Shown here in pieces: positions 4,433 through 54,869 of a stretch of 64,000 bases of DNA. A program made the translations under genes and the position numbers. Each line of letters opens with the position of its first letter. The first letter of the stretch is position 1. The stretch is from Gracilariopsis chorda. Its lineage: Eukaryota; Rhodophyta; Florideophyceae; Gracilariales; Gracilariaceae. The stretch spans positions 124,001 through 188,000 of the forward strand of contig NBIV01000043.1 in assembly GCA_003194525.1 (NCBI GenBank), written 5' to 3'. The notes beneath the pieces are model-generated. The model made no database searches, had not been told where the DNA came from, and saw only the letters and a program-made list of their open reading frames with translations.

Positions 4433-4463
4433 CCATTGCCCTCTATCTTCATTGACGTCCACG

Positions 4464-5555: not shown

Positions 5556-6033
5556 TGTAGGATAGTGAGCCAAGTGGGCAAGCTCCTAATGGTCTCGTGG
5601 TAGCGTGGCAGAGCTGGGGGGTCCTAAGGTTAATGAAGCGGCGGCGACACCTCTGGTAATGTTGGCGCAATGGGGTGGCGCTGACTACGCAGTCCTACAG
5701 GTCGGAATTGCGGTAGCGATACCTTGAAGGCCAAAGGGAATTGTGAGTACCGAGTACGGGGGTGCTCAAGACTCACAAGGGTGTCTGAGTTTACTGTCCC
5801 TAGGGGAGGCGCAGCTCGAGGTGCCTAAGTATCGGCACCGAGGCGCCTCGACCCTGTGGCACTGTAAAGTGCCCTACTCTACAGTAGCTATATCTAGTCC
5901 TATGGTTACTAATTCAATAAAATTAAATAAATTATATAAAATACAGATAGCCATCCTTGGGCCAGATACACAACGTGTATCGTCCACATGGGTCTCCAGA
6001 GTTGCGGAATCCACTGGACTTCACTATCTCACA
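5556..6033 (-). repeat. Element B 3' LTR
   Basis: A 478-bp LTR matching 25408-25885 by eye. It contains a 12-bp palindrome CGAGGCGCCTCG and an AT-rich stretch with a TATA-like sequence on the minus strand. The purine tract AAGGAGAGGGCGA on the minus strand (6034-6046) adjoins it and is the likely polypurine primer. Confidence 0.93.
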
Positions 6034-6364
6034 TCGCCCTCTCCTTAGGCTTGACCGTCTCGGTCGAACCGCTTGTCCTCCACGGGTATCTTCAGCCCAT
6101 TGGCCGGTTACCAAGTTTTTCCTTTGGTCTCACCGTTCCTACAACGCACCTGTCCGATTTCAGCTGTCAGCGGCACCCCGCTCCCCTTTGGCCGAGTGCA
6201 TGAGGGCGTTCGCCCCCCTGGAGGAGCCTAGTCCGTACTCTTTCCGACCATATCTCGTCCTAAGGTCGGCACGGCGGGGGAGGCCGGGTGTCCGGTCTCC
6301 GGAGAGGCCAGTGGTAGTGCCACGGTGCTGTTTCCATCGGGCGAGAAGGACCTGAGGAGTCCTA
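6034..6364. other. Element B interior between 3' LTR and antisense ORF
   Basis: This stretch holds the polypurine tract of element B (6034-6046, minus strand) and otherwise non-coding DNA upstream of the antisense ORF. I see no convincing TATA box for the first ATG at 6365; the better TATA-like box lies further down at 6554. Confidence 0.55.
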
Positions 6365-8572
6365 ATGGAGTTCATACAGCGTCGGGGGCGCTCCAAGCGC
6401 CTCGCGATGTCCCATTGGTCGACGCCGTTGATCGGGCGGCACGCGGCATCAGCTGTCCAAGTGGGTTCATCCGTGATCGCGTCCATCGGTCACGTCGGCG
6501 ATCGCGCGCGCCATCGCCTTGTCCACCGGTCACGGCTGCTATCGGCGTCACAGTATAAGTGGCGCTCGGACTCTCCAATGGACGACGCGTTCACCCTTGA
6601 GGTATCGGACATCACTCCTGTGGGTCTGCCGCCTTCCATCGCCCGAATGGCTAGTTCCTCCGGCGCCGGCCGCGGCTCCAGCTGGACCCCTGGCACGCGA
6701 TACGACCACACCCATGGTAGACCGCGCACCAATCGCGAGGTCTCTGTCCCTTGGTCTGTCGAGGAGTACGTAGGGTCCATGAGGGGGCGTTATTTCGACG
6801 CGCGTCGTTTCGAGGCCGTTCCGGACTTCCCGCGACAGAGCAAGAATGCCCGTCCCGTTTCGTGGAAGAACCGTTGGTTGCATCAGCCGATGGACGTCCG
6901 TACTGGAAGGAGGACTCGCGAACTTGTCCCTGTGGATATACCGTTCGTCCGCTGCTCGGAGGAAACGGACTACCAGTGGCGCCTCAATTTCCTTGTGGAC
7001 GAGCTCTTCCGCCACTTCCCAGCGGGCTCTGCGGACCAGTTTCCTCCTAAGGGACATAATCCATTGGGCCTGCTATGTTTCCTCCCGCCGTATGACGGAA
7101 TATACTGGATGACCAACAGGGACTTTTGGGGAGACATCGTGGAGCCGGATTCTCGCATCCGAAGGTCCCTTGGATACTTCTTTGGCTGGCATAACATTGA
7201 GTTTCATGATATGCCAGCCCGTAACCGTGAAGGTCTGTATGCGCCGGTCTACGAGTTTCCCGATGGGTCTGGGTTCCAGTCCTTTTGGCAGGTGTCACCG
7301 CTCCTCTTGGTTCCGACTCCTTCGGTCTTTGCGTATCACACCAAGCAGCTCCTCGATCCCGAGAGCCGCCTGTGGCAGGTTGCATTCGCGGAGTGGGGCG
7401 TGTTCGTCCTGATGGCCTTCTTGCACACCGCGCGCTACGGAGTCCGTGGGAACGTCCGCAGTAAGGATTGGCGTGTGTGGTCCGATGGAATTGGCATGAG
7501 CTGTCCAAAAGGTCGAGTGTGTCCGCTTCCGGTCTCGCTCATTAACTATTTTCGCAACTTCCTTGGGGTTCAGAACGTAGTCCGTGGGACGGAGCTCACC
7601 GTTGAGGACACCGAAGGCCTTTTGGAACATGTCCTGCAGGTCGATTGGGAGAACACCCCTGGCTTCCTTTGGTATGATTATGAGACCGATACCTTCAGGA
7701 ATATTCCCCGCCACCCACAGGGTCATGACAACGGGAAGGCCTACTTGGCGAAGCCGTTGAAGGAGAATCCACCGGTCGTCCCGCGGGGAAGCGTACAGGA
7801 CTACTGGCCTAAGGGTGAGGGCTTCTCTTCAAAGAATTTCCTGGAGGATGAGGCGTTGCCCGAATCTGGGGGTGGTGCGGCTCCATTGGCGATTCCCTTG
7901 GGTCCTTCGGTGGTTACCGATGGGGACGATGGGGACGCCTTCGCAGGTCCGGAGGTCGCGCATGTTCCCGTTGGTCCTTCGGTTCCTTCATCTGCTCCGC
8001 CCCCGGCTGGTCCTCCGGTGGTCGAGCCTACTCCAGCTGGTCCTCCAGTGGAAGAACCTGCTCCTGAGGTCAACCCTTACATCCTTGTGGGTGGGGCGCT
8101 TTCCGTGTCGGTCACCCCGCTGCCGCCTATCCCGGCTATCCCTATGGGCGTAACCAATGCGGCCGAAGCTCTCCGTGAGGTCGCTGGTGCCGCTGGCCTC
8201 AATGTTTCCGGTGGCCTTGAGGACTTATTGCGCCGCGCTAGGTCTTGGGCGCGTCGTGCGTCGCGTTACGGGGCCCTGCTGGAGGAGAATGAGGCCCTAA
8301 AGGACTCGGTGGAGCAGATCCTACAGGAGAACGCTCATGTGCTGTCCAACAAGGTCCTTGCGGACATCGACGCTCGCTATGGGCTCGCTTTGAGCGACAG
8401 TAGCGGCGGTGCAGGCTCCGCGTCCAGTGGTCCGCACAGTCCTCCGCGCAAGCGCCAGCGCACGATGGGTCCCAGTGGTCAGAGTTCCGGTGGTCAGGCG
8501 CCAACCGATGGCGGTGGTGGTGCGTCTGAGGGCCAGGGCGGCGACGCGATCACGCCGGCTCCATCGGCCTGA
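6365..8572 (+). CDS. Antisense accessory ORF of element B, 735 codons, function unknown
   Basis: This long frame runs opposite to element B gag-pol, between pol and the 3' LTR. I do not recognise the protein. Residues about 128-480 are rich in Trp, Phe and Tyr and look like a folded domain (PWSVEEYVG, WRLNFLVDELF, GYFFGWHNIEF, FAEWGVFVLMAFLH). Residues 540-570 are Pro-rich with a twice-repeated PTPAGPPV-type unit. Residues about 619-665 form a likely coiled coil (LLRRARSWARR through EENEALKDSVEQILQEN). A basic cluster PRKRQR at 694-699 resembles a nuclear localisation signal; the tail is Gly/Ser-rich. The first ATG is at 6365, but a TATA-like box at 6554-6559 argues for initiation at Met72 (6578) or Met95 (6647). 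An AATAAA follows at 8603-8608. Antisense extra ORFs are known in some plant LTR elements, but I cannot link this one to any family. Confidence 0.75.
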   Translation: MEFIQRRGRSKRLAMSHWSTPLIGRHAASAVQVGSSVIASIGHVGDRARHRLVHRSRLLSASQYKWRSDSPMDDAFTLEVSDITPVGLPPSIARMASSSGAGRGSSWTPGTRYDHTHGRPRTNREVSVPWSVEEYVGSMRGRYFDARRFEAVPDFPRQSKNARPVSWKNRWLHQPMDVRTGRRTRELVPVDIPFVRCSEETDYQWRLNFLVDELFRHFPAGSADQFPPKGHNPLGLLCFLPPYDGIYWMTNRDFWGDIVEPDSRIRRSLGYFFGWHNIEFHDMPARNREGLYAPVYEFPDGSGFQSFWQVSPLLLVPTPSVFAYHTKQLLDPESRLWQVAFAEWGVFVLMAFLHTARYGVRGNVRSKDWRVWSDGIGMSCPKGRVCPLPVSLINYFRNFLGVQNVVRGTELTVEDTEGLLEHVLQVDWENTPGFLWYDYETDTFRNIPRHPQGHDNGKAYLAKPLKENPPVVPRGSVQDYWPKGEGFSSKNFLEDEALPESGGGAAPLAIPLGPSVVTDGDDGDAFAGPEVAHVPVGPSVPSSAPPPAGPPVVEPTPAGPPVEEPAPEVNPYILVGGALSVSVTPLPPIPAIPMGVTNAAEALREVAGAAGLNVSGGLEDLLRRARSWARRASRYGALLEENEALKDSVEQILQENAHVLSNKVLADIDARYGLALSDSSGGAGSASSGPHSPPRKRQRTMGPSGQSSGGQAPTDGGGGASEGQGGDAITPAPSA
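6554..6559 (+). promoter_or_regulatory. TATA-like box for the antisense ORF
   Basis: The sequence GTATAAGTGGCG around 6553-6564 closely resembles GTATATAAGTGGCGGC in the LTR promoter of element C (TATA at 9754-9760). It lies 24 bp before the ATG at 6578 and 93 bp before the ATG at 6647, so it is a plausible core promoter for plus-strand transcription within element B. Confidence 0.5.
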
Positions 8573-9397
8573 GGGTACTCTTCAATTAGCCTGTTAGGTC
8601 TCAATAAAGTCAAGTTATCCATTGGTTATTACGTCCGTTTCCCTTAGGTCGGCTTGACCGGCCTTCAGGTCAATTAGTGCGGTGGGTTGCCCTCAGGGTG
8701 CACCGCGACGGTTCGCGCTCCAGTGGACTTGCAACAGTTTGCAGTAGCCAATGGAGGCGTAGTGATCTCGCTCGGCGTGGCCGCTTTCTCAGGGCAGCGG
8801 TTTTCCAATGGGCGTGGACACGTGCCCAACGTGGGAGCGCTGGGGCTCGTGCCCATTCTGGACAACACCCTTGGCACTCGAAAAATCAAGCGAAGAAATT
8901 GTCCATTGGAAATTGTTGATTTTTTGAGATGCCAGTGGCCAGCGCGCGCGCTTCTTGCGTGCTCGTCGCACAATGTGCCCGTACGGTGCCGTTTCGGCCG
9001 AAACGAGGAGACTCCGAATCGGCTGTCCGTTGGTCTGTGCGCGGCCTAGAAGCCGAGATATCGGCCGTTCTTTGCTTTGGCCGATTTCGGGGCGTGCAAC
9101 GCCACTTCAAAAAATTGTCCATTTGGCCGACGGCGTTTTTGATCAAGCGCGCGCGCCTTGGCAGGCGCTGCCCGCGCTGTAAGTCCATCGGATGTTTCAT
9201 TGGGCTGATAGTTAGTGCCAAAATTAGTGTGCGCCAGAGGCAGGCCGCACTATAGTTAGACCAGAGGATGGTTAGCGCTCCGCGCCGTGGCCCATGGAAA
9301 GCCAGATCGGCTTAGCGCGCGTAGTGCGCGTGCTTAGTACGTCTGTCCTATGGTCAGCTCAGCGACTTTAGCGCGATAGCTAGCGACGTCCATTGGA
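8573..9397. other. Non-coding spacer between the convergent antisense ORF and pol of element B
   Basis: No supported gene. AATAAA at 8603-8608 on the plus strand can serve the antisense ORF. The stretch has eight copies of CCANTGG within about 0.8 kb (for example near 8619, 8721, 8748, 8805, 8902, 8931 and 9389) and a 14-bp palindrome GTTTCGGCCGAAAC at 8991-9004. The 3' end of element B pol meets it at 9398. Confidence 0.6.
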
Positions 9398-9471
9398 TTA
9401 ATTCGAACCTTGACCATTGGATTTCAATATGTATGCCCCCTCCTTAAGGTCGCGCTCCGTGCGGCCCATGC
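9398..9471 (-). pseudogene. Element B pol, last codons beyond nested element C
   Basis: The pol frame of element B is cut by element C just after the chromodomain. On this side of the insertion the same frame resumes in the CATGC duplication and runs 23 codons (MGRTERDLKEG and on) to a stop at 9398-9400. The phase agrees exactly on both sides of the duplication, which supports a single former ORF. Confidence 0.85.
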
Positions 9472-10341
9472 TGTAGTGCAATGGCCCGTCGAGGGTATGC
9501 CGCACTCGGTCTTCATAAGGATTTGATCCGCTCCCGGCTGCCACAACCGTGGTTATGAATGGTATTAGCTTCACTAGCCCCATTTGGGGGTGTCCCTAGG
9601 AAGGGTAGTAATTGTGGCCACGTGTGCCGATATTGGCCCGATGACGGGTGCGCCGTGGCAAGCCTGCCACGGTTGCACATCTGTACTACAGTAGCCGGCC
9701 TTGCCGGGTGGCTAGATATTTCTAGATATTTATTTTAATATGTTGAAGTGCCGTATATAAGTGGCGGCACTGCCGCCACTGTACGGAGAAGTAAACCTCA
9801 AGGAGGACTGGGCTCTGTTCATCTAGCCGCTTGCGCACGGTCACTAACCCCTCCCGGGGAATACCGCCGCAACACCGGGTTGAGCAACCTGCCTCCGTCT
9901 TTGAGGAGTCCGGAACCGTCGTTACGGCTATTTCTTTATTGTTTCTTTTGCCTATTATAGGTTTCTTCCGTCATACGGCCTCTGTTTCTCTGCCCTGTTA
10001 TACAGGTTGGCCCCCATCGTATAGGGATCTGATTTCCCACTCTCGCGAGTCTGCGCTCCGCAAGTGCGGCTTGTTTGTTGATCATTTGTCCCACAACCGT
10101 TGGGCTGGGTACTGTGCTACCACCTCTCGTGGATTCTCCGACGGAGTCGGCTTGCTTGGCCGGTTCTTACCCTCTGACTGCACGCCCAGTACGGGGTCGC
10201 CCGGATTTACACCCGGCTCGTGTCGACCCTATCAGAGGGCTCTCTCGCTGTGCCGCCTCTCATTGAGAGCAAGCTTGAACACCTTGGTGGTGCTTCCGCG
10301 ACGCGGCTCGTGTCTGTGCCACGTTCGTAGTTTGCACTACA
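9472..10341 (+). repeat. Element C 5' LTR
   Basis: This 870-bp LTR contains a TATATAA box (9754-9760), a perfect 9-bp inverted repeat GTGGCGGCA-C-TGCCGCCAC directly after it (9761-9779), an 8-bp inverted repeat CCGTGGCA/TGCCACGG with a 4-nt loop (9653-9672), and a doubled CTAGATATTT upstream of the TATA. The 174-codon frame at 9831-10355 runs out of the LTR and has no recognisable domain; I treat it as chance. Confidence 0.94.
9754..9779 (+). promoter_or_regulatory. Element C LTR core promoter with hairpin-forming palindrome
   Basis: TATATAA (9754-9760) is followed without a gap by the palindrome at 9761-9779. The transcript start expected 25-30 bp after the TATA would fall just past the palindrome. 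The same arrangement is repeated in the 3' LTR (palindrome 18252-18270). Confidence 0.65.
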
Positions 10342-10344
10342 AAC

Positions 10345-10362
10345 TGGTCTCCTGACTTAGAA
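10345..10362 (+). other. Element C primer-binding site
   Basis: TGGTCTCCTGACTTAGAA begins 3 nt after the 5' LTR. It starts with TGG, the complement of tRNA CCA. Its complement has a C where tRNAs have invariant C61, so a tRNA 3' end is a good fit. It matches the element B site at 16 of 18 positions. I cannot name the tRNA. Confidence 0.7.
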
Positions 10363-10505
10363 CCGGATCTAGTGCCAACATCGTTGGAGTTCGCTTGCCG
10401 TGTTGGTGCCCATTCCGTTGGGAGTACCCGTCTTAACGGTTCTTTTCTTTCGCCCGTCTTGGGAACTGGACTTGGTTGCCATTGGCCGACTGTGTCGGTG
10501 AAGCT

Positions 10506-12545
10506 ATGTCATCCCGTGGTCGGGGTGGCCCTTCGAAGGCCGCTTCGGTCCCCGGATCATCCGGCTTACCGCGTGGTCTGCCCCCGCTTCCGAGGGATAT
10601 TCTCGATATCCCTGGAGAGGGCGACCGAAATCCGGCTCCTCGAGGTGCCCGCTCTGATGCAGGCGCCCCACCCGCTCGTCAACCAGCCTCTCAGCCCGCT
10701 GTTGCGGCTACTTCCGCTTTGGCGGCTAACCCTGCTGTCACGGAGGGCGAGGCAATGTCATCTCGGTCTGACGAGTATACGCTCCGCGACGTGGAGGCAC
10801 ACATGCGAATTCTCCAGAACTCGCATGTGGGCCTACTACAGGAGATGACAAAAATCCGGCAACGGCTGGCTGAAGCCGAAGCTGGGAATGCTACAGAAGA
10901 CGTCCGTGTTCTACGGTCTGATGTCAACCAGATTATGGAACACCGACAAGTGTCGGCTGTCCTGCACGAGCAGGCTGCCACACGTTTAGACCGCTTGGCG
11001 GCCCGTCTTGAGACGGTTGAGCAGACCCTCATCGCAGATGCGGTTGCTCCCGGAGTACCGGTTTCCGAAGGTTCTCGGCACTCACACCGCTCCCGGGACC
11101 GCCCGGCAAAGAAGAAGAAGAAGGTCAAGGTGGAATCGGACTCTTCTTCTTCGTCCTCTTCTGAGGATGAGCCTCATCCAGAGGGTTCTTCTACCGAGTC
11201 GTCGGACGCGGAGAACGAACGCTCTCGTCACCGTGCTTCCCGCTCGCGGGCTACTGAAGTCACGCAGAGTGCTGCGCGAGGCCGTACGAAAGGACGGAGA
11301 CACCTTGGATTAAAGGAATTGAAGCCGACCAATTTGTTGTATCAAAAGTTACTTTCATACCGATACTATCGGCTAGAAGATACCACGCCCCAGAGGACCC
11401 CTCGTGGGACGGGTAAGGTCCGAAACCATCTCCGCCAAATGGAGCTCACAATGAAGGCCCACAAGTTTTCGGGGGAAGATCCAATCCTTGTGTTGGATTT
11501 TCTAAGCCGCTTCGTTGCGGAAGCCGATATCCTTCGGATGAGTGAGGCTCAGGCCTATATTGCGTTGCCGTATTTTCTTACGGGTCTAGCCGAAGATCAG
11601 TTCAATTCGGTGCGGGGCTCTACCCGAGCCTCCGAAGGAGGAGTGACTTGCTGGCCGGAGGCGGTTCAATATCTGTTGCGTTCCTACGCGACAGGAAACG
11701 CCATACAAGGCGCAATACTCGCGCTGCGAGACACGACGCAAAAAGCCGACGAGTCGGAAACTGTCTATTCGACCCGCCTCAATAAGGCTTTCCACCGTTG
11801 TGGCAATGTGTTCTCGGCTGCCGAGCGTTGCACCATGTTCGTCGATGGATTAACCCGAACCATCGGTGGACTAGTGGCCCGATATCGGGAAAACAATCGC
11901 CGGGTTTCTTACCTGGAATTGGTACAGTTTGCCCAAGCAGAGGGAGATGCAGTTCGCGCCCGAGCTGGGATTGGTTCTCGAACCCGCCGCTTGCTTCATG
12001 TAGAAGCGCGGAATGTGCCTCTGCCTCATTCGCGAGGATCAGCCCAGGGGGGTTATGACAACGTCCACCTGTTACAGGGCGACGAGTCTTTGCCGAGTTC
12101 GGAATTGCCGTCGACAACGGAACCGTCTGCCACGGATGTGGACCCCGCATTGTATGTTGGTAGGCAAGTTCCGGCACTGCCGGTGCCGCACTCTAGTGGA
12201 TATCGAGCCCAACGCCCTGGATGGAGGGACCCTTTCCCCCCGCGTCAGGAGCGTCGACCGGCAAACCCGGAGCTTCTTCGACAGTTGATTTGTCACACCT
12301 GTTACAGGCACGGGCATATTGCGCCAAATTGTCTATTGCCCGTTAGGGATATGGCAAAGATTGTCTCTCACTACGAGTCGTTGACGCCCGCCGAGCGGGA
12401 ACGTGTCCCCGAGAAGTCGTACCTTCGCGCGAAGGCGGATACTCAGCCTGAGAGACAGGATACTGTACCACCTCTTGGTGGAAACGTAGCCGCACCTGCG
12501 GAATTGCCACCTCCGCAGACTAGCGGCGAAGCTCAGAAAAACTGA
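10506..12545 (+). CDS. Element C Gag
   Basis: This is the structural capsid protein of element C, 679 residues from the ATG at 10506; the in-frame TTG upstream is not a credible start. The N-terminal third is disordered with a coiled-coil stretch (TLRDVEAHMRILQNSH and on), then a basic KKKKKVKV run and Ser/Glu-rich segment. The retrotransposon capsid domain lies in the middle (AHKFSGEDPILVLDFLSRF, then FLTGLAEDQF). Near the C terminus is a canonical CCHC zinc knuckle, CHTCYRHGHIAPNC. The stop TGA (12543-12545) follows the heptamer GAAAAAC at 12536-12542, where pol can be reached by a -1 shift. Confidence 0.9.
   Translation: MSSRGRGGPSKAASVPGSSGLPRGLPPLPRDILDIPGEGDRNPAPRGARSDAGAPPARQPASQPAVAATSALAANPAVTEGEAMSSRSDEYTLRDVEAHMRILQNSHVGLLQEMTKIRQRLAEAEAGNATEDVRVLRSDVNQIMEHRQVSAVLHEQAATRLDRLAARLETVEQTLIADAVAPGVPVSEGSRHSHRSRDRPAKKKKKVKVESDSSSSSSSEDEPHPEGSSTESSDAENERSRHRASRSRATEVTQSAARGRTKGRRHLGLKELKPTNLLYQKLLSYRYYRLEDTTPQRTPRGTGKVRNHLRQMELTMKAHKFSGEDPILVLDFLSRFVAEADILRMSEAQAYIALPYFLTGLAEDQFNSVRGSTRASEGGVTCWPEAVQYLLRSYATGNAIQGAILALRDTTQKADESETVYSTRLNKAFHRCGNVFSAAERCTMFVDGLTRTIGGLVARYRENNRRVSYLELVQFAQAEGDAVRARAGIGSRTRRLLHVEARNVPLPHSRGSAQGGYDNVHLLQGDESLPSSELPSTTEPSATDVDPALYVGRQVPALPVPHSSGYRAQRPGWRDPFPPRQERRPANPELLRQLICHTCYRHGHIAPNCLLPVRDMAKIVSHYESLTPAERERVPEKSYLRAKADTQPERQDTVPPLGGNVAAPAELPPPQTSGEAQKN
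12536..12542 (+). other. Candidate -1 frameshift site, element C gag-pol
   Basis: In the gag frame the sequence reads CAG AAA AAC TGA, so the heptamer G-AAA-AAC directly precedes the stop. Pol is open in the -1 frame from this point. The heptamer is not a textbook XXXYYYZ site because the first base differs. Confidence 0.5.
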
Positions 12546-15500
12546 GTGCGGGAGCCTCCAGCAATGGAGAGGCGTCCCCAACCTTGGGGCCGAAAACGCC
12601 TGAGGTTGAGAAGCCTCGCTCCCGGGTCACAATCCTTACGAGGAAATTGGCCACAACAGACGTGGACTCAGAGCACCTCGGTGTTCTACGTCGTCCGTGG
12701 ATACGGTCTCGTAACAACCGGATTCCGGATAGAGTCCTGGTCATGGCAAAGCGAAACTATAAAGTTTACGCTGACCTAGGTGTTTCCGACCAGTACATGG
12801 TTCGGCAATTAGCCGTTCTTGACACGGGCGCTGGTCCAAACTTTTTGGTTCAATCAATGATTCCGTCTCACTTACGGCCCCGCATCCGAGCGGCGCCGCA
12901 ATTGGATATCGCGGATGCTAACAATCGGCCACTTTCTACAGTGGGAGTAATCGATTTGCTCGTCCGGCTAGGCCGGTATGTTGTGAAGCTTGACTTTTTG
13001 GTATGCGAGAAGCTGGCAGCGCCAGTTATACTGGGGTGCGACTTCTGCGACCGCTTCGTCGAATCAATTCGACCGCGAACGCGGACTGTCGAGATGGAAG
13101 ACGGCACGACGATTCCGATTGTTCGGCGACCCCTACGGAGGGCTTTGAAGAAGCAGGTACCATTGCCTGCTGCGCAGGAACCAGCCGCTGCTGCGCGGGT
13201 ATCCACGAAGCTCCGAGTAGTTCGGTCTGTGTGCATTCCGCCTGAATCGCAGGTTTGGGTTACAGTTGCTTCTCCACAGTGTGGCCTACAAACGGTTCAA
13301 CCGTTGCCTCATCTACAAGAGAGGAATCAACTTGCCCTTGCCAATGGGATTGTTTTCGTTGAGCCAGATAAACCTTTTAAGGTACTGGTCGCGAACTTCA
13401 GCCGTTATAATCAACGGTTAATGCGCAACCAAGTAATTGGCTCAATGCTTCCGCACCCTGCGGCTATCGTACCGACGAAGGTATCCGCTGCCGAGGTTCT
13501 CGGGATCCTCGACGCTGAGGAGGGGGAGAAAAGCCGAAGTGAATCGGAAATGAGCCCAGTTAAATCGGGAACAGTTAAGCCGAACAGTACGGATAACGCC
13601 GCCGAACCGACTTCGTCGGCTGGAGATAGCCTGTCGAAGGAAGAGACGCCGAATTCACCGGAGAAGGACGTAGCAGCCACTGTGGTGGACAAGCAGGCTG
13701 CCTCGCAGGAACTCGAGTCTCTGGACCTTGATCACGTCCCAGAGACTCACCGCAATAAGCTGCGGCAGATGCTCAAAGAGTTCACGCCCATGTGGGATGG
13801 CTCCCTAGGGAAGATTGGAATTACCGAACATCGGATTGATTTGTTCCCGAACACTCGGCCGATTTCGCAACCCCCTTACAGGGCAGGACCGACAGCTCGA
13901 GAAGAGGAAAAGGCTCAGGTTGAGAAAATGCTCCGAGCCGGAGTTATTGAACCAGCCCAGTCACCTTGGGCCTCACCTGTGGTGCTCGCTCCCAAAGCTG
14001 ATGGGTCTTGGCGATTTTGTATCGACTACCGCAAGTTGAATGCGGCTACGGTGAAGGATGTCTATCCCATCCCACGAATGGATGAATGCATCGATTCATT
14101 GGGCGAAGCGAAAGTTTTCACGACCCTCGACGCTAATTCGGGCTATTGGCAAGTCCCTCTTAGGGCTGAGGACCGTGACAAGACGGCTTTTGTATGCCAT
14201 CAAGGCCTCTACCGATTCATTCGGATGCCCTTTGGGTTAACTAACGCGCCAGCCACATTTCAACGCGCTGTGGACATTTTGCTCGCCCGCTTCAAGTGGA
14301 AGACCTGCCTGGTTTACCTGGACGATGTTATCGTTTATTCCAGCAACCTGGACGAGCACCTGACCCACGTACGGGATGTTATGCGAACGTTACGCGATGC
14401 AGGCATCACCCTGAAGCTCAAGAAGTGTGAGTTCTTTACCGACACTGTGAAATATCTCGGGCATGTCATCCGTCCTGGACGGCTTGCAATTGATGAAGTA
14501 CGAGTGAAGTCCCTCAAGGATGCAAAACACCCGCGAAATCAGACGGAACTCCGATCATTTCTCGGCCTATGTAATGTTTATCGCCGCTTCATCCCGAACT
14601 TTGCGGATATTGCAGCACCACTGAATGAACTCCTTCGAAAAGGCCAGCCAGTTACTCTGGAAGAGTTTGATGACCGGAAGTCAACGGCATTCTCAGCACT
14701 CGTTGAGGCAGTGACATCACCACCGGTGCTATCCCTACCAAGGGCCGGATTGCCATACGCCGTTGACACGGATGCGAGCGACTATCAGGTCGGCTGCGCC
14801 TTGTTCCAAACCACAGAGAGTGGAGATCGATTGCCAATTGGATATTGGTCAAGAAGCCTCAACGTCCACGAGAGGAATTACTCTGTGTCAGAGAAAGAAT
14901 GTCTAGCAGTGGTCTGGGCCCTCCAAACCCTGCGCCCCTACCTGATGGGGAATCATTTCGAAGTCTACACCGATCACTCGGCTTTACGCTGGCTACTCTC
15001 TATAGCGGAGCCATCTGGCCGCCTGATGAGGTGGAGGCTGCGCTTGGCAGAATTTGACTTCGAGATGAAGTATAAAAAGGGACTCCTGAACACTCAGGCT
15101 GACGCACTTTCCCGCTTGGAGACAGCGGCCGAAGCTGAGCCAGTCGATGACCTGGAGATTCCGTGCTTCCTTTTGGAAGACGGCGAGAGCGATGCCGATG
15201 AAGAATCGGAAGGATGGGACATCTACGATGCTGTTTCAGCCGTGTCAGACACGCGACCCGAACCGGGCTCGTTCGTACCAATTACGCCGGAAGAACTCAT
15301 CCGGGAGCAGCATACTGACCCATTTTGTACTGGGATTCGGAGCCGTCTGAACGGTGGAGCTGAGTTGCCCTTCATCACGAACGATCAGGGATTCTTGATC
15401 CGAACCGTCGGAGATAGGCCACAGATTGTGGTTCCGCACTCACTCCAATCTCGGGTGCTGACCCTGTCGCACTATGCGAAATTGGCCGCCCACCCTGGTG

Positions 15501-17962: not shown

Positions 17963-18832
17963 TGTAGTGCAATGGCCCGTCGAGGGTATGCCGCACTCGG
18001 TCTTCATAAGGATTTGATCCGCTCCCGGCTGCCACAACCGTGGTTATGAATGGTATTAGCTTCACTAGCCCCATTTGGGGGTGTCCCTAGGAAGGGTAGT
18101 AATTGTGGCCACGTGTGCCGATATTGGCCCGATGACGGGTGCGCCGTGGCAAGCCTGCCACGGTTGCACATCTGTACTACAGTAGCCGGCCTTGCCGGGT
18201 GGCTAGATATTTCTAGATATTTATTTTAATATGTTGAAGTGCCGTATATAAGTGGCGGCACTGCCGCCACTGTACGGAGAAGTAAACCTCAAGGAGGACT
18301 GGGCTCTGTTCATCTAGCCGCTTGCGCACGGTCACTAACCCCTCCCGGGGAATACCGCCGCAACACCGGGTTGAGCAACCTGCCTCCGTCTTTGAGGAGT
18401 CCGGAACCGTCGTTACGGCTATTTCTTTATTGTTTCTTTTGCCTATTATAGGTTTCTTCCGTCATACGGCCTCTGTTTCTCTGCCCTGTTATACAGGTTG
18501 GCCCCCATCGTATAGGGATCTGATTTCCCACTCTCGCGAGTCTGCGCTCCGCAAGTGCGGCTTGTTTGTTGATCATTTGTCCCACAACCGTTGGGCTGGG
18601 TACTGTGCTACCACCTCTCGTGGATTCTCCGACGGAGTCGGCTTGCTTGGCCGGTTCTTACCCTCTGACTGCACGCCCAGTACGGGGTCGCCCGGATTTA
18701 CACCCGGCTCGTGTCGACCCTATCAGAGGGCTCTCTCGCTGTGCCGCCTCTCATTGAGAGCAAGCTTGAACACCTTGGTGGTGCTTCCGCGACGCGGCTC
18801 GTGTCTGTGCCACGTTCGTAGTTTGCACTACA
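17963..18832 (+). repeat. Element C 3' LTR
   Basis: An 870-bp copy of 9472-10341; I found no difference by eye. It is followed by the CATGC duplication at 18833-18837. Confidence 0.94.
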
Positions 18833-18837
18833 CATGC

Positions 18838-21800
18838 GGCGCCAAAACCTAAGGACAAAGTTCTCCGGGATGTTCTCCCGGGGTTCCCATGTGTCCTCAG
18901 AGGGTTTGTAGCCGTACCAATGGACACGGTATTTGACGACGCCGTCGTCGTCAATGCCGGCATTGACCACACGGTCTATAGCGCTTTCCTTAGGAAGTGA
19001 AGATACGTCCTTCGGAACATCCACAGGCCACTCCTCGGGGAGATCCATCTCGTCCAAAGGGGCGTAACCATCATTGGCCAACTGGGACGGTACTCCGTCG
19101 TTGTGTTCCTCTTGGGATGAGGGGGCCAGTGGGTCAGCCGAGACGGCCTTTGGAAGTGGTGTAGCGATCAATGGATCTGCCGTAACTACCTTAGGGCGGG
19201 ACGAAAGCTGCTCGTCCGTAGGTGTAGAGTCCTGTACGGCGGAATTGGGAGCATCTGAAGGGGCGTCCTCAGGAGTTTCCAAAGGGGAACCAGTGGGCTT
19301 CGGCGGCATAGGCGCGGCCGTAACGCGGTCAATTGCGACGGTGTCCTGTAGGCCATCGATTTCAATAGTGACCGTATGGGACGTAGCTGAGAGAACCTTA
19401 TAGGGACCAGTGGACCGTGGGAGGAGCTTTCGAGTGATGACCTCGATATCGTCCTGCGGCTTATCCGATGGAGCGCGGTCTAAGTAGACCATGTCACCGG
19501 CCTTAAAGGATAGCGTAAACCTGACGGACTTATCGAAGTCATCCTTGTACCTCCGTTGGGACTTGTTCAACCGTGCTCTGGCCGTACGGATGATATCGTC
19601 AATCCGCTTCCGGGTGTACCGTTTGGCCTGGGCAGGGGTCATTTCTGCCGTGAAGTCCTGTGGTATCCAGCTGTCCTTAAGGTCAACCGCAAAGTGCGGG
19701 GGCTGTCGCGTGAGCGTTAGGTCGAAGGGTGTAGTCCCCGTGGACCGATGGACTTGCGTGTTATACGCATAGACCAGTGGTCCGACGTAGTCATCCCAAT
19801 CGGCCTGGTGCTCTGCAACATAATGCACCAACCTGTCCTTAATGGTTCTATTGAAGCGCTCAGCCTGTCCATTGGTCTGCGGATGATAAGCCGTTGTGGT
19901 GACGTGCTTAATTCCTAAGGTCGAACAGACGTGAGCGAAGAATTTCGACACGAATTGTGGCCCGTTGTCCGATAGGAGATAAAGTGGCAGACCATATGGA
20001 TACACCCAATGGGTCAAGAACGCCATTGCTACGTCAGTGGCCGTAGTGGACCTCATGGGAATAGCTCTGGTGAGCTTGGTGAACCGATCGGTAAGCACCA
20101 ATATAAATTTGTTCCCATAGGTCGTTGACGGTAATGGCCCTAGGATATCCGTAGCGATAAACTCCAGTGGTCCTGCGGCTGGGAACAGCTTCAACTTGGC
20201 CTGATGGATGGTTTTCGAGCCGCGTGCTTTCACGCACGAAGCGCATGTCCTAGAGGTTTGCCAGAGGTCATTAGCCATAAAGGGCCAGTAGAAATGTTTC
20301 CTTAAGGACTGATACATTCTTGTTCCGCCAGGATGGCCGGCCAACCGGGGGTAATGGGCGAGGTATAGAACCCGTGCCCTGAGGACCTTGGGAATGACCC
20401 GCTGGATTGCTCCGTCCAGAGGGGCTCTGCGACAGAGCAGTCCGAATCGGTCGTAGTCGAACAGACAGCCAGGGGTCCCGACGAGGTCAGCCTGGTTTTT
20501 GCAGTACTCGTCGTCCTTTTGGGCCTGAAGGAGCTCATCCAGCGTGATGGGCAAGAGCTCCTTTTCCTCTGGTTGAACCGCATGAACCTCAAGGGTCCGC
20601 GCTTCGCTGTCGTCATCCATAGGCCAGTCCACAAGGTAAACTGCATTCACGTCCACATCGGAGTCATCGCAATTAACGCGTCCTAGAAGGAAGTCATCCT
20701 CATGGTCAGATTCATAACCTGAAAGGTCCGGCGTGGGTAGCTCGTCGTCCAGTGGGGATTCGTCGGTGCCGTCGGTTAGGATCCTAGAGAGGGCATCCGC
20801 TGCTCGGTGCTTGATCCCCGGCCTATAGGCAACGTCGAAATCAAACTCCGACAGGCGCAATCTCCATCGGGCGAGCCTGCTGGACGCGTCGGTCATGTTC
20901 ATAAGCCACCTGAGGGAATGATGATCAGTCCTAATGGTAAAGCGGACTCCTTCCAAGTATGGCCTTAAGGTTAATACTGACCAGACAATGGCTAAGCACT
21001 CCTTCTCGGACGTGCTATAATTCCGCTCTGGGCTCGTTAGCGAGCGGCTCCAATATCCAATTGGTCTATAGTCCTTCGGAGATTCTTGTTCCTGGAGGAG
21101 AACACATCCAATTTGGCCATCGGACGCATCCGTATCAAGGATGTACGGTTTGTCCGGTTTAGGCAAGGCCAATATAGGAGGGTTCAGAAGCTTATCCCGC
21201 AGGGCCTCAAAAGCTTCGTATTGTTCGTCCGTCAGGCAATCGAACTCCGATGGGGTCCCTTTGCGCAGCATGTCGTTAAGCGGCGCAGCGATCTTTGCAA
21301 ACCCTTGGACAAAGCGACGATAGACGTTGCACAGACCTAAAAAAGAACGCAACTCCGTATGGGTCCTGGGGGGCTTAGCTTGCCGTATGGCGTCAGTCGT
21401 CCTCGAGGCAACCTGTAGGCAGCCAGGGCGGACCACATGGCCAAGATAATCCACAGAGGACTGGAAAAAGAAGCACTTGGGGAGCTTCAAAGTTATTCCG
21501 GCCTCACGGAGAATCCTCAGGACTGTTCTAACATGGGAGAAATGTTCACCAATGGTCTTCGAAAAGATGATAACGTCATCCAAGTAGACCAGCGCGAACT
21601 TCCATTTGACCCTAGATAGGATAATGTCCATTGCCCTCTGGAACGTCGCGGGTGCGTTCATTAATCCAAAGGGCATCCGAATGAATCGGAAAAGTCCCTC
21701 GTGGGTCGTAAACGTGGTCAGCGGCTTCGCGTCATCGTCCAGTGGTATTTGCCAATATCCCCAATTGGCGTCCAAGGTGGTAAAGACAGCTGCCTCTCCT

Positions 21801-23140
21801 AAGGAATCGAGACAGTCGTCCATCCGGGGGATAGGGTACGAATCCCGTTTGGTCATAGCGTTGAGCTTCCTATAGTCAACGCAAAACCTGACGGAGCCAT
21901 CCTTCTTGGCCACAAGGACAAAAGGGCTTGCCCATTCGGACTGATGAGGAGGAGCTGGCTCGATGACGTTGGCCCTCCTCATCTTGTCCATCTGTTCGGC
22001 CACGATGGTTCTCTCTTTTAGGCCCGTCCTATAGGGGTGCTGGTACACTGGCTTCGCGTCGTCCTTAAGGTCAATTCGGTGCTTTGTCGCCCGAATCTCG
22101 CCTAGCTGGCCAGACCACATGGATTTGAATTCCCGAAGGAGCTCTATAACCTGAGGCCTATAGGATTCGAATTCGTCGCCCATGTTGACGTCCCCCTCCC
22201 AGGACTCGACGTCCTCGTCGTCGTCCGGTTGGGAGTTGTCCATATTGGTTTCCATAATGGCCACAGGAGCTGGCAGGGCGATGCCAACTACTGTTCCTTT
22301 AGGTAATCGAACCGGGTGGTCAGTGAAGTTACTGATACTGACCACAAAGGGCTGCCGCGGACGGATGTCCATAACTCCATTGGCCATAAGGGTGAGTTGA
22401 CGCCGGATCGTCTTGGGATGATTCTGCAGCGTCAAAAGACCAGAGGACTCGCACTGAACCCAAGCGGTGGTCTGAGTCATCGCAGGGATGACCAGGGCTT
22501 TTGTGAGCCTGACCTTATTGGACACAGTGTTCGTCGCCAGTGGAGGTTTCCGCGGGTTTGCCTCAGGTCCCGGCTTGGAACCTATCAGGGCCACAGGATG
22601 TGCGCGATAGAACGCGACTTTCCGAAGGCCAGGGTAGATGGCCTTCACGTAGCGGTCGATGAAGGAAGTCCCAAGGATACATTCCGCTCCCAAGTTTGGA
22701 CATACGAGGAACCACGTGCGGACTCGCAAACTGCCCAGTTGGACAAATAAAGAAATGATTCCTTTAATGGCCATTGGTCTGCGCGAAGCATCAGTGATCC
22801 TAGGGGTCTTCCTCACCTGAACCTTGTCTTCCCAACCACTCGGTAGGACCTTAGGATGTACCAAATTGGGCCCAGCGCCCGTGTCCAGCACACTCGTAGC
22901 CACTCTAGAGTGTGAGGGGCGGAGTCCTATGGTCATTCGAACTTTATAGTTCTCCTTCCTCAGGACACAAATAGGGTCCTGGTCATCCAGCGACGGCTCC
23001 AAAGGGTCGTCGATCCATTCGTCCATTGGTTGGTGAGACTCCGAAGGACTTCTGGAGTCAGATGACTCCTGTCCATCGGGGTTGAGGCAGGGATTCTCAG
23101 AGGGGCGGCTTGCCTCAGGTCGCTCCTCTACGCGTTTTCC
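18838..23140 (-). CDS. Element B Pol polyprotein (protease, RT, RNase H, integrase, chromodomain)
   Basis: The pol frame is open from the end of gag (about 23140); the first ATG is at 23026. Counted from that ATG: retropepsin VLDTGAG near residue 47, reverse transcriptase about 360-540 with YLDD at 481-484, RNase H about 625-750 (DTDASDGQIG, SEKECLAI, RTDHHSLRW), the integrase HHCC region (HYPRLAGHPGG ... CASCVK), and the core D, D, E in IATDILGPLP, LSDNGPQF and NGQAERFNRT. A chromodomain follows (AIDRVVNAGI, YRVHWYGYKPSEDTWEP) with the aromatic residues expected for a methyl-lysine cage. Element C is inserted 12 codons after the chromodomain core; beyond 18833 the frame runs artificially into the LTR of C, and the true end is at 9398. 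I see no internal stop. Confidence 0.93.
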
Positions 23141-25302
23141 TGTTCGGTCTTTCCGTGACGGTCCACTGGAGCTTCCACGGGGGTCACCTGAGGGACAGTA
23201 TCCGTATCGGAAATATCGACAGCGTTGACCTGAGAGGCTGGAGCCTCCCGCGGCGTGGCGTATCGACTAGACCCTGAGGACTGATTCCGCTGGTACTGAC
23301 GAGGGTAATTTCCCTCCGCCCTCCTGGCCTGGAAGTTCTGATCCCTTAGGGCCAACAGGTTCTTGCGAACGTCCTCCGGCATGAACTTCATGCAATCACA
23401 CGGCCTGGCCGTGGAAAGGCAGAGGTAGCAAGGGGGCCCGCGGGTGAATACGTCCTTCCTAGGTTGGACGAAAGTATACCGCGGCGTCGTTTGTCCAGAT
23501 GGAGTAGTAGTAGTTCCAGTGGCCGATATGGATGGAGCACCAGACGGAGCGGAAGAAAAAGAGACCGCAAGGATATCTCCTTCTTCCGAACGGATGTTAC
23601 CAGTGGACTCGCTTTCAGAAGAGTTGACCATATGGACTTTGGAACTCTTCCTTAAGGGTGATGCTCGGCCTCTGGTATCCAAGTCAGCCGCTCGGCGGGA
23701 TGTCCTATAGGTCTTGCCGTATCCTTCGGCATATGTGACCAGCTGTCGGAACGAGAGGCGTTGGTTGTCCGAGTGGTGATTACGCACGTGAGTCCTAATG
23801 GCCGGCAGCAATCCAGCGATGAAGTGCTGCTTGAGTCGCCCTTCGGAAAACACATTCCCACAGCGGTACGCCTTCTTCCACAGTTGGTCAGCAAAGTCCG
23901 TTTCGGTTACGTTAGTGCTTTGCCTAAAGGAAATCACGTCCTGATGGGCATCCATGATTACGTCATCAGTGGCGTACGTCTCCAAAAGGTAATGGACGAC
24001 CTCTGGGTAGGACCTAAGGAGCTCCCTATCGGTCGCATCCATTGGGTCACTGGAACCGGAGATCTTCGAAACCACATGGTCACGCGCTTGTCCACTGAGG
24101 AAAAACTGAAACAGATACAGAGCGGCTCCCTCGTGGACGCCGTTCTGGTCGCAGGCCGTACGGAATTGAGACAGAAACCTAAGGACAGCAATCGGGTCAG
24201 CGCCCGAGAATTTGTCCGTGACGGTAAGCTGCATCCGTTTGGCCCACTTGGTGACTCGTCGAGCCACCGAACCGGAATACCTTGAGGACCTGTTGTCCAG
24301 TCGGTAAGTCCGATAGTCCAACACTTTCTTAAAAAGTTCGTTGGTGGTTGCCAGCGGCCTGAGGCGTCGAACAGCCGCCTCATCCGCGTCCGTATCGGTC
24401 GAAACTGACGAGTCCGAACTGGACCCGTCATCGCTCTCGTCCGAATGGTCTCTCCTCTTCCTCGACTTCTTGTTCCTTCTAGGTCTTCTATTCTTCCTTC
24501 GGTCAGCACTTCGCTCGTCCAATGGAGCGATCTCGACATCGCCAAATCCGATGGGTCTGCGGGCCTGCTGGGAGCCCTGGTACCTCATGGGTCGTGCAGT
24601 CATTAGGCCTTCTTGCCGGGGAGGCTCTCTTCCACTCCCTGGGTGCACTTCCATTTGGTCGTCCTGTTGGTTTACCCGGCGAGGGGCTGGTAAAGCAGCC
24701 ACTCCCGGGGGTTCGGAGTGTGGTTGCCACACGGAGGCCGAAGGAATACTTTGAATATTGGCCGCGAGGGCCGGGGTGCCTACCTGGCGTGTGACCTCCG
24801 TCCGTATGGTCGAGGCCATGGCTTCCACGAAGGTCGTGGATTCCAGGACCTGAGGAACGAGGCGAGTAATCCGTTGGTCAATCATTCCGTCAAGGACCTC
24901 TGGAACACGCGTATCCAAAAGGGACTGGACGTGCTCCTCACAGAGCCGTTTCAGCTGCGGCCAAAGGACATCTGCGAGACCCCTGGAGAGGTCTTCCCTC
25001 ACATCTGGAGAAGCTTCCTGTAGGTCTTGCGTCGGCGTGGCCGGCTGGGAATTGATCCTGTTAAGGCGTGAGCGGAGATGAGCGGCCAAATTGGACTCTC
25101 TCGCAATCCGTTCAGGATTATCCACGGGGGTCAATGGACGCCCTAAAGGTTGACTGCGCGTACTCCGTCGGTCACTGCTCGCATCGGCCGCGAGGCCAAT
25201 GGTTTCAGGAACCGTCGACAGTCCACTGGGGCCAGCCTGTGGCGTCCTCTGGTCATCTGGTCGGTTGTTATTTTCGGTATCCATGGGGCGGTTGCTTGTC
25301 AT
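23128..25302 (-). CDS. Element B Gag
   Basis: This Gag of 724 residues starts at ATG 25300-25302. The N terminus is disordered, then a helical segment (VREDLSRGLADVLWPQLKRL) and a basic, Asp/Ser-rich region. The capsid domain shares KFSGADPIAVLRFLSQF with element C Gag. The usual CCHC zinc knuckle is missing; only an irregular Cys cluster (CYLCLSTARPCDC) lies where the knuckle would be. The stop TAG (23128-23130) lies one codon after the heptamer GGAAAAC (23134-23140), where pol can be entered in the -1 frame. Confidence 0.9.
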   Translation of the reverse strand: MTSNRPMDTENNNRPDDQRTPQAGPSGLSTVPETIGLAADASSDRRSTRSQPLGRPLTPVDNPERIARESNLAAHLRSRLNRINSQPATPTQDLQEASPDVREDLSRGLADVLWPQLKRLCEEHVQSLLDTRVPEVLDGMIDQRITRLVPQVLESTTFVEAMASTIRTEVTRQVGTPALAANIQSIPSASVWQPHSEPPGVAALPAPRRVNQQDDQMEVHPGSGREPPRQEGLMTARPMRYQGSQQARRPIGFGDVEIAPLDERSADRRKNRRPRRNKKSRKRRDHSDESDDGSSSDSSVSTDTDADEAAVRRLRPLATTNELFKKVLDYRTYRLDNRSSRYSGSVARRVTKWAKRMQLTVTDKFSGADPIAVLRFLSQFRTACDQNGVHEGAALYLFQFFLSGQARDHVVSKISGSSDPMDATDRELLRSYPEVVHYLLETYATDDVIMDAHQDVISFRQSTNVTETDFADQLWKKAYRCGNVFSEGRLKQHFIAGLLPAIRTHVRNHHSDNQRLSFRQLVTYAEGYGKTYRTSRRAADLDTRGRASPLRKSSKVHMVNSSESESTGNIRSEEGDILAVSFSSAPSGAPSISATGTTTTPSGQTTPRYTFVQPRKDVFTRGPPCYLCLSTARPCDCMKFMPEDVRKNLLALRDQNFQARRAEGNYPRQYQRNQSSGSSRYATPREAPASQVNAVDISDTDTVPQVTPVEAPVDRHGKTEQENA
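23134..23140 (-). other. Candidate -1 frameshift site, element B gag-pol
   Basis: In the gag frame the minus strand reads CAG GAA AAC GCG TAG. The heptamer G-GAA-AAC ends one codon before the gag stop, and pol is open in the -1 frame from here. Confidence 0.5.
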
Positions 25303-25387
25303 TACCAGTCCGTCGGTCCAAAGTCCAAAGGTAGAATCCCGTAAATTCTTCTTTCCTAAAGGTCTGTATCGAAACGTCCAAAGGGGA

Positions 25388-25407
25388 TTCTAGGTCGGGA
25401 GACCAAA
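25388..25407 (-). other. Element B primer-binding site
   Basis: On the minus strand, directly after the 5' LTR, the sequence is TTTGGTCTCCCGACCTAGAA. From its TGG onward it matches the element C site except at two C/T positions, so both elements probably prime from the same tRNA. Confidence 0.7.
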
Positions 25408-25885
25408 TGTAGGATAGTGAGCCAAGTGGGCAAGCTCCTAATGGTCTCGTGGTAGCGTGGCAGAGCTGGGGGGTCCTAAGGTTAATGAAGCGGCGGCGAC
25501 ACCTCTGGTAATGTTGGCGCAATGGGGTGGCGCTGACTACGCAGTCCTACAGGTCGGAATTGCGGTAGCGATACCTTGAAGGCCAAAGGGAATTGTGAGT
25601 ACCGAGTACGGGGGTGCTCAAGACTCACAAGGGTGTCTGAGTTTACTGTCCCTAGGGGAGGCGCAGCTCGAGGTGCCTAAGTATCGGCACCGAGGCGCCT
25701 CGACCCTGTGGCACTGTAAAGTGCCCTACTCTACAGTAGCTATATCTAGTCCTATGGTTACTAATTCAATAAAATTAAATAAATTATATAAAATACAGAT
25801 AGCCATCCTTGGGCCAGATACACAACGTGTATCGTCCACATGGGTCTCCAGAGTTGCGGAATCCACTGGACTTCACTATCTCACA
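25408..25885 (-). repeat. Element B 5' LTR
   Basis: A 478-bp LTR, the 5' one for this minus-strand element. A TATATAAT-like box lies on the minus strand at 25784-25791. The duplication TCTGT follows at 25886-25890. Confidence 0.93.
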
Positions 25886-25890
25886 TCTGT

Positions 25891-29202: not shown

Positions 29203-29205
29203 TGC

Positions 29206-29220
29206 AGCGATGCTTACCAG
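29206..29220 (-). other. Element A primer-binding site candidate
   Basis: The minus strand reads CTGGTAAGCATCGCT directly after the 5' LTR. TGG at the second position is right for a PBS, but the sequence differs from that of B and C, and its complement lacks the C expected at tRNA position 61, so the assignment is weak. Confidence 0.4.

Positions 29221-54835: not shown

Positions 54836-54869
<34 letters not shown>

What the first reader, a model, noticed from the sequence alone, without database searches (positions are those of the whole stretch)
5556..25885. Element-wide saturation with short palindromes CCANTGG and CCTNAGG
Seen: I counted by eye about 40 CCANTGG and about 30 CCTNAGG in the 11 kb of element B, in LTR, gag, pol, antisense ORF and non-coding DNA, in more than one codon phase. 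Elements A and C (4.9 and 9.4 kb) have only one to three of each. Chance expectation for either motif in 11 kb of even composition is about 3. Known: in Arabidopsis, VANDAL transposons encode VANC proteins that bind a short motif over-represented in their own sequence and relieve silencing. Inference: element B could be a retrotransposon counterpart, with the antisense ORF product as the factor. Alternatives are unusual mutation or codon bias, or CCAAT-box recruitment (CCAAT is inside two of the four CCANTGG variants).
Basis: partly seen in the sequence, partly recalled or inferred. Interest (0 to 1): 0.92.

Follow-up and report, generated by a model that had tools for sequence, protein, structure and literature searches.

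The report
Hairpin-saturated retrotransposons in a red alga
A lineage of mobile elements in what looks like a red-algal genome carries hundreds of tiny mirror-like CC...GG signals along its whole length, with a spacing that differs between families, as if each family wrote a recognition code over its own genome.

Summary
Confirmed and widened. Element B (5556-25885, interrupted by element C, 9472-18832) holds 42 CCANTGG and 32 CCTNAGG; 3.6 each are expected. They belong to a broader rule: CC and GG lie 3-5 nt apart far too often in LTR, gag, pol, antisense ORF and spacer, beyond synonymous-codon shuffles. C, thought to lack the feature, has its own version: 192 perfect hairpins of 4 bp or more starting 5'-CC and ending GG-3', about 20 per kb (coding z 17-22). 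Six further C-clade loci exceed their shuffles; element A and two host stretches do not. Stem pairs co-vary: 39 of 58 doubly changed pairs stay Watson-Crick, against 47 of 180 slid controls. Sites turn over while density persists. The antisense ORF is not the common factor: C has none, and 18 places in the genome keep only its last fifth. Best reading (0.36): dispersed self-recognition sites on the element's own genome, read by Gag or another element-encoded protein and sharpened by competition between copies. Reader and nucleic acid are unproven; absence of G.U wobble argues against simple RNA folding.

The parts
5556..25885 (-). Element B: Ty3/gypsy LTR retrotransposon with chromodomain, about 10.96 kb, split by element C; TSD TCTGT
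   Evidence: identical LTRs and flanks; Pfam RT, RNase H, integrase, chromo
5556..6033 (-). B LTR (3' in element sense); 21 CC-N3..5-GG dyads against 7.4 in dinucleotide shuffles
25408..25885 (-). B LTR (5' in element sense), identical to the other
23128..25389 (-). B gag; CC-N3..5-GG 122 against 57 after synonymous shuffle (23267-25389)
   Evidence: weak Retrotrans_gag match below cut-off; homologous to C ORF1
18838..23266 (-). B pol up to the C insertion; CC-N3..5-GG 234 against 105
6356..8572 (+). B antisense ORF, 738 aa, no Pfam match; CC-N3..5-GG 124 against 82
8573..9471 (.). B spacer between pol and antisense ORF, taken as non-coding; 36 CC-N3..5-GG dyads against 12.9 in dinucleotide shuffles
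9472..18832 (+). Element C: Ty3/gypsy element inserted in B (TSD CATGC), carrying 192 CC..GG hairpins of 4 bp or more (a few overlapping frames included)
9472..10341 (+). C 5' LTR; 20 hairpins; CC-stem4 (k 7-10) 17 against 1.4 in dinucleotide shuffles
10437..12545 (+). C ORF1 (gag) with one CCHC zinc knuckle; CC-stem4 hairpins 43 against 5.8
12524..17542 (+). C pol; CC-stem4 hairpins 74 against 9.1
10486..10498 (+). example hairpin CCGAC-tgt-GTCGG in C gag
17963..18832 (+). C 3' LTR, identical to the 5' LTR
4217..29436 (-). Element A: small Ty3/gypsy element that holds B; more distant in Pol and without the feature (0 hairpins of this kind)

Best explanation
B and C belong to one lineage of Ty3/gypsy elements that saturates its whole genome with short CC..GG signals. 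In C and its relatives the signal is a mini-hairpin: any 4-5 bp Watson-Crick stem whose foot is 5'-CC/GG-3', with a short loop. In B and its relatives it is shortened to CC-N3..5-GG, mostly with A or T next to CC and GG. I propose that these are dispersed, redundant self-recognition sites on the element's single-stranded genome (RNA, or first-strand cDNA in the particle), read by an element-encoded nucleic-acid-binding protein, most likely Gag. Copies compete for a shared pool of that protein, so copies with more sites are favoured, and total density is maintained while single sites come and go. Shown: the enrichment, its independence from codon choice, Watson-Crick covariation in the C clade, different prevailing geometry in the two clades, turnover with persisting density, absence from element A and from the host stretches tested. 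Inferred: that a protein reads it, that the protein is Gag, that the function is genome selection or packaging, the competition between copies, and which nucleic acid is read.
For: Synonymous-shuffle excess in both elements and in non-coding parts. C hairpins in LTR, ORFs and spacer and in all codon phases. Of 16 dinucleotide inverted repeats CC..GG stands out in B and C; 159 of 406 perfect 4-bp stems with loops of 3-6 in C start with CC. Covariation 39/58 against 47/180 slid. Partial conservation of sites between families (15 of 40 hairpins kept at 64% identity, 8 of 34 at 55%) with densities of 8.8-24.1 per kb in nine C-clade loci. Prevailing spacing differs: B N3-5, C N6-10, L042 N8-11, L054 N7-9. 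B and C Gags are homologous (32% over 265 aa), but C Gag has a CCHC knuckle and B Gag none by pattern. By Pol identity (BLAST, no tree) B and the C clade are closer to each other than to A. Variable sites among ten young C copies: 20/852 in stems, 22/442 in loops. Model precedent: multiple dispersed packaging stem-loops in RNA viruses (PMC6281560, abstract and one section).
Against: No excess of G.U pairs in the sense strand (GT 49 against 44.5, TG 34 against 29.1) nor of the antisense wobble, and one-sided changes do not prefer G.U; ordinary RNA folding should tolerate wobble. B's signal cannot form a stable hairpin (2 bp), so one mechanism must cover two shapes. Geometry is not cleanly split by clade: L061, in the C clade, also has an excess of short CC-N3..5-GG (95 against 61.4, z 4.7) and a broad spacing peak, and L062 a weak one (z 2.0). 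RNA folding energy of C is only about 1 kcal/mol per 60 nt below shuffles. In B, dyad CC/GG are only slightly better kept than other CC/GG (13 of 13 comparisons in that direction, 1 of 13 below p 0.05, not independent), and B copies show no polymorphism difference. In C the stem-outside difference is small (20/852 against 103/3115) and hairpins were defined on one of the copies compared. No binding data; the link to Gag is by correlation over two clades only.
Confidence: 0.36

Rival explanations
1. DNA-level recognition by an element-encoded or host DNA-binding factor (anti-silencing, nuclear tethering or similar) other than the antisense ORF product. Centre-to-centre CC-GG distances are 5-7 bp in B and mostly 10-12 bp in C, L042 and L054, near half and one helical turn.
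For: Strict Watson-Crick pairing without wobble; near-equal loop composition on both strands in C; spacing classes.
Against: A dimer reading fixed half-sites cannot demand complementarity at positions where all four Watson-Crick pairs are enriched (1.7-2.8 times in C). The base after GG is A more often than the mirrored T before CC, also in stretches taken as non-coding (B 34 against 18; C, L042, L049, L052, L054 together 33 against 20), a modest strand asymmetry.
Confidence: 0.2
2. Mutational origin: reverse transcriptase jumps between CC and GG and copies the opposite arm, writing short inverted repeats and correcting their arms.
For: Inward complementarity bounded by CC/GG, lack of wobble, and Watson-Crick double changes all fit arm-to-arm copying.
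Against: Among 10 young C copies only 3 of 145 variable sites have a neighbour within 4 nt in the same carriers, so multi-base events are hardly seen. Hairpin density is nearly as high in pol (19.1 per kb) as in LTRs (23.0 per kb). It does not explain B, which has the CC..GG excess without stems, nor why GG..CC shows no comparable peak.
Confidence: 0.15
3. Selection on RNA structure as such (stability, RNAi evasion, translation or export), without a dedicated reader.
For: Perfect stems and covariation; sense and antisense RNA of C, L042 and L054 fold 1-2 kcal/mol per 60 nt better than shuffles.
Against: No wobble tolerance, mainly one orientation of one base-pair step, no dominant loop sequence, 2-bp 'stems' in B.
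Confidence: 0.12
4. VANC-like system with the antisense ORF product as reader of CCANTGG/CCTNAGG.
For: The 30 loci with the antisense ORF all peak at spacing 3 or 4, and the strongest short-spacing excess is in B.
Against: C has an analogous feature without the ORF; 18 amplified places without most of it; L061 of the C clade has some short-spacing excess; features of VANC motifs not met. Structure model too poor to judge DNA binding (mean pLDDT 39.5).
Confidence: 0.08
5. Landing pads: the elements' integrases prefer CC..GG dyads, and elements enriched in them attract insertions away from host genes.
For: C sits in B exactly at CC-CATGC-GG. LTR retrotransposons of plants show a weak preference for palindromes (PMC6911290, passages).
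Against: CC precedes the TSD in 2 of 10 C copies (one of them the window's), and GG follows it in 0 of 14 B copies. Few flanks are hairpin-rich: 3 of 9 C and 1 of 9 B flanks exceed 15 hairpins per kb. Only one side of each site was available outside the window.
Confidence: 0.05
6. Composition or codon bias.
For: B is 56% GC.
Against: Synonymous and dinucleotide nulls; C, of the same GC, lacks B's pattern and the reverse.
Confidence: 0.01

Closest known systems
Dispersed packaging signals of single-stranded RNA viruses (MS2 and others; PMC6281560, abstract and one section)
   Same: Many short stem-loops with a shared recognition feature spread over a genome, individually redundant
   Different: In C about 20 per kb, the shared feature at the stem foot (CC/GG) and not in the loop, strict Watson-Crick, in LTR retrotransposons, with spacing that differs between families; no binding data
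VANC/VANDAL anti-silencing motifs (Arabidopsis; PMC5735166, passages)
   Same: Short motif over-represented in the element itself, differing between families
   Different: Not confined to non-coding DNA, no tandem repeats, no fixed sequence in C, retrotransposon rather than VANDAL DNA transposon, reader not identified
Bacterial DNA uptake sequences (PMC1939737, PMC2397512; search listing with abstract starts only)
   Same: Short signals scattered over a genome that mark self
   Different: Uptake sequences are specific short words; the C signal is a shape with variable bases. Drive by competition between copies is my inference here
Plant Retand Ty3/gypsy elements with antisense ORFs between pol and 3' LTR (PMC11963269, passages)
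   Same: B has the same layout
   Different: No TRP28 (PF04195) match in B's ORF; B has a chromodomain, whereas Retand is described as a non-chromovirus lineage; no tandem repeats in B
Ty1 Gag recognition of its RNA (PMC8396678, passages)
   Same: Gag selects element RNA by structural motifs
   Different: [quoted passage not shown] no element-wide signal appears in the passages seen

Membership tests
Ty3/gypsy LTR retrotransposon (B and C) | identical LTRs with 5-bp target site duplication | tested here: met
   B TCTGT, C CATGC
Ty3/gypsy LTR retrotransposon (B and C) | pol order RT, RNase H, integrase | tested here: met
VANC/VANDAL-type anti-silencing | motif mainly in non-coding regions | tested here: not met
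   gag, pol and antisense ORF also enriched
VANC/VANDAL-type anti-silencing | motif accumulates in tandem repeats | tested here: not met
   0 arrays in 5556-25885
VANC/VANDAL-type anti-silencing | element-encoded protein binds the motif and removes silencing | not testable with these tools
   needs DAP-seq or expression; copies without most of the candidate ORF have amplified
Dispersed packaging signals | many dispersed stem-loops in the genome with a shared recognition feature | tested here: met
   C clade; B only as CC..GG dyads
Dispersed packaging signals | stem-loops form in genomic RNA | tested here: inconclusive
   covariation yes, wobble no
Dispersed packaging signals | coat protein binds them and assembly depends on them | not testable with these tools
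   no binding data
DNA uptake sequence-like word | one fixed over-represented word | tested here: not met
   C stems use all four pair types at inner positions
Retand lineage | antisense ORF between pol and 3' LTR | tested here: met
   6356-8572
Retand lineage | TRP28 domain in that ORF | tested here: not met
   no Pfam family up to E 1
Known structured RNA family | Rfam match at gathering threshold | tested here: not met
   0 matches in 4200-29500

The most novel reading that the evidence does not exclude
A lineage of retrotransposons writes a family-specific recognition code, a shape rather than a word, over its entire genome: base-paired mini-hairpins with a CC/GG foot in one clade, a shortened CC-N3..5-GG form in its sister. 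The code is read by the element's own Gag and kept dense by competition among copies, so that code and reader diverge together. It would be a eukaryotic, retroelement counterpart of packaging-signal and uptake-sequence systems, written through coding sequence in all frames.
Probability: 0.33. Interest if true: 0.93.

Novelty: categorically new. Interest (0 to 1): 0.88.

Why it matters
How retrotransposons tell their own genome from host RNA, and one family from another, is to my knowledge largely open. Here the sequence itself carries a quantitative, family-specific signal of unusual strength, so the question becomes testable: recode the hairpins synonymously and measure packaging, cDNA synthesis or silencing. 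If the cause is mutational instead, it would show a reverse transcriptase that writes inverted repeats. It also warns that coding sequence of mobile elements can be heavily constrained by a second code, which affects dating and selection tests. The listings of my nine literature searches (open-access PMC papers only) showed no title or abstract start that reports it; papers outside that library were not searched.

Tried and rejected
Antisense ORF as sole reader: rejected as common cause. CCAAT box: rejected. Integration target: one-sided flank test negative (2 of 10 C copies with CC, 0 of 14 B copies with GG) and few flanks hairpin-rich. RNA stability: wobble test negative. An apparent C.A excess (98 against 47) vanished when the arms' own composition was used (98 against 88). 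Template-switch mutation: 3 of 145 variable sites clustered. Structure of the antisense ORF product: AlphaFold2 with 19 sequences gave mean pLDDT 39.5, so no fold search was made. Relatives in viral contigs: none for two queries. Homologues of the antisense ORF: one distant protein among the 7994 candidates scored. Rfam: none.

Errors of mine: loci from the genome search are not turned to the match strand. I noticed this. The strand-dependent parts for L042, L020 and L023, the comparisons that used minus-strand loci, and the copy comparisons are void or unreliable; what I use was redone. Counts of CC..GG dyads and hairpins do not depend on strand. The six comparisons pooled share families and are not independent. 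Hairpin counts include overlapping frames of the same stem in a few cases.
Full report
WHAT WAS CHECKED. The window holds three nested Ty3/gypsy elements: A (4217-29436), B inside A (5556-25885), C inside B (9472-18832), each with identical LTR pairs (about 217, 478 and 870 bp). B and A lie on the minus strand, C on the plus strand.

THE SIGNAL IN B IS BROADER. CC followed by GG after 3, 4 or 5 bases occurs 222, 212 and 147 times against about 77, ratios 2.9, 2.8 and 1.9; at the other spacings tested (0-2 and 6-19) the ratio is about 1 or below, and GG..CC shows no such peak. The first base after CC and the last before GG are mostly A or T for spacers of 3 and 4. Every part of B carries it. 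Synonymous shuffles give 57, 105 and 82 where 122, 234 and 124 are seen in gag, the pol piece and the antisense ORF (z 9.6, 14.6, 5.8). Non-coding parts exceed dinucleotide shuffles: LTR 21 against 7.4 (z 3.8), 3' non-coding 20 against 11.4 (z 2.1), spacer 36 against 12.9 (z 5.6). A pol and three host ORFs show no excess.

C HAS A SISTER SIGNAL. In C the CC..GG peak is at 6-10 bases, and the bases inside pair: at spacing 8 the first and second inner pairs are Watson-Crick in 62% and 56% of cases against 27% and 26% expected, while the pair just outside CC/GG is complementary in only 15% against 25%. C holds 192 perfect hairpins with stems of at least 4 bp and this foot: 20 in each LTR, 3 in the leader, 47 in ORF1, 96 in pol, 6 between pol and LTR. 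Of 406 perfect 4-bp stems with loops of 3 to 6, 159 start with CC; the next classes are CG 48 and CT 39. Synonymous shuffles give 5.8 and 9.1 where 43 and 74 are seen in ORF1 and pol (z 16.6 and 22.1). The LTR has 17 against 1.4.

RELATIVES. The genome (91.3 Mb, G000; window at C43:124001-188000) was searched. For the antisense ORF 94 match pieces were listed and 30 loci taken, one of them the window. All 30 peak at spacing 3 or 4, with peak ratios of 1.7 to 3.1. Of these, ORF pieces of seven relatives were shuffled, and all seven exceed the null (z 2.6 to 5.1). For C ORF1 64 match pieces were listed and 30 loci taken, one the window. Subfamilies differ in spacing: C 6-10, L042 8-11, L054 7-9; L049 is weak. 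CC hairpins per kb: C 20.3, L047 19.3, L042 15.4, L052 11.8, L051 16.2, L049 10.1, L054 24.1, L061 10.3, L062 8.8, B 1.9, A 0.0, host 1.1. L061 and L062 are about 70% identical to C in Pol; B is 42-46% identical to those three and A about 34-36% to all four (BLAST). L042 to L054 are placed in the C clade by ORF1 only. Six loci exceed synonymous shuffles: L061 34 against 5.7, L062 27 against 5.0, L054 54 against 5.8, L042 16 against 3.2, L052 9 against 2.4, L051 10 against 3.1. L061 also has a short-spacing excess (95 against 61.4, z 4.7) and L062 a weak one (z 2.0), so the two geometries are not strictly exclusive. A 1.9-kb Copia piece shows 2 against 0.6 (z 2.0): little or none, but a weak control because it is short and 38% GC.

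EVOLUTION. Between C and L042 (64% identity in ORF1) 15 of 40 comparable hairpins are kept; between C and L054 (55%) 8 of 34. Where both bases of an inner pair changed, the new pair is Watson-Crick in 39 of 58 cases over six comparisons that share families, against 47 of 180 for partners slid by one or two bases. Among ten young C copies variable sites number 20 of 852 in stems, 22 of 442 in loops and 103 of 3115 outside; among ten B copies there is no difference between dyad CC/GG and the rest. In B, dyad CC/GG are kept slightly more often than other CC/GG in 13 of 13 comparisons, 1 of 13 below p 0.05; at 51-53% identity they are kept no better (37-43% against 34-41%), yet the density stays. 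So density, more than position, is what persists.

RNA OR DNA. If stems were selected as RNA, G.U pairs should be favoured. With each arm's own composition as null, GT 49 against 44.5, TG 34 against 29.1, AC 42 against 41.8, CA 98 against 87.9 (eight C-clade loci): no wobble excess on either strand. The base after GG is A in 51% of B dyads (24% overall) and is the commonest base in eight of nine C-clade loci (28-45%). In stretches taken as non-coding A after GG exceeds T before CC 34 to 18 in B and 33 to 20 in the C clade. That hints at a single-stranded or directional reader but is not decisive.

ROLE OF THE ANTISENSE ORF. It has no Pfam match, one distant homologue in a capped protein search and no usable model. 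Besides 12 places at 98-100% DNA identity over the whole ORF, 18 places carry only nt 1758-2217, at 98-100% identity (40 of 64 candidates scored). Thirteen of those 18 contigs also hold a full-length gag at 99-100% identity, 5359-5362 bases from the remnant (places, distances worked out by hand), so they are the same elements with most of the ORF missing. The deleted form has thus amplified at least as well as the full one among the places scored. Together with C, this rules the ORF out as the common cause, though help in trans is possible.

HOST. The named hits to C ORF1 are proteins of Agarophyton chilense, a red alga of the Gracilariales. That the window comes from a red alga of that kind is inferred, not shown.

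VERDICT. Best reading: element-encoded self-recognition sites, reader probably Gag, with competition between copies as the driving force (0.36). DNA-level recognition, RT-driven mutation and plain RNA structure remain open.

Noticed in passing
G000 contigs listed (C216, C101, C37, C28 and others): A deletion derivative of element B that lacks nt 1-1757 of the antisense ORF is at least as numerous (18 places) as the full-length form (12 places) among the places scored, at near-identical sequence.
   Followed up: partly
window 23128-25389 and 10437-12545: B Gag lacks the CCHC zinc knuckle that C Gag has at residues 619-632; B has CYLC...CDC towards its C-terminus instead. Both have a basic, serine-rich middle part (sequences, by eye).
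   Followed up: partly
window 9460-9476 and 18833-18844: C is inserted in B exactly at a CC-CATGC-GG dyad, with the TSD as the spacer; other C and B copies do not show a consistent CC or GG there.
   Followed up: yes
window 12524-17542: The reading frame of C pol ends with what looks like the start of a chromodomain (YRVRWYG), so the domain seems cut short in this copy; judged by eye, no Pfam chromo match.
   Followed up: no
window 4217-29436: All three nested insertions have identical LTR pairs, which suggests that A, B and C all inserted recently.
   Followed up: no
window 39099-40739, 42777-45095, 54637-58059: Host genes match AAA ATPase, DNA polymerase alpha subunit B and a HECT ubiquitin ligase; CC..GG dyads in the latter two are below their synonymous-shuffle expectation.
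   Followed up: no
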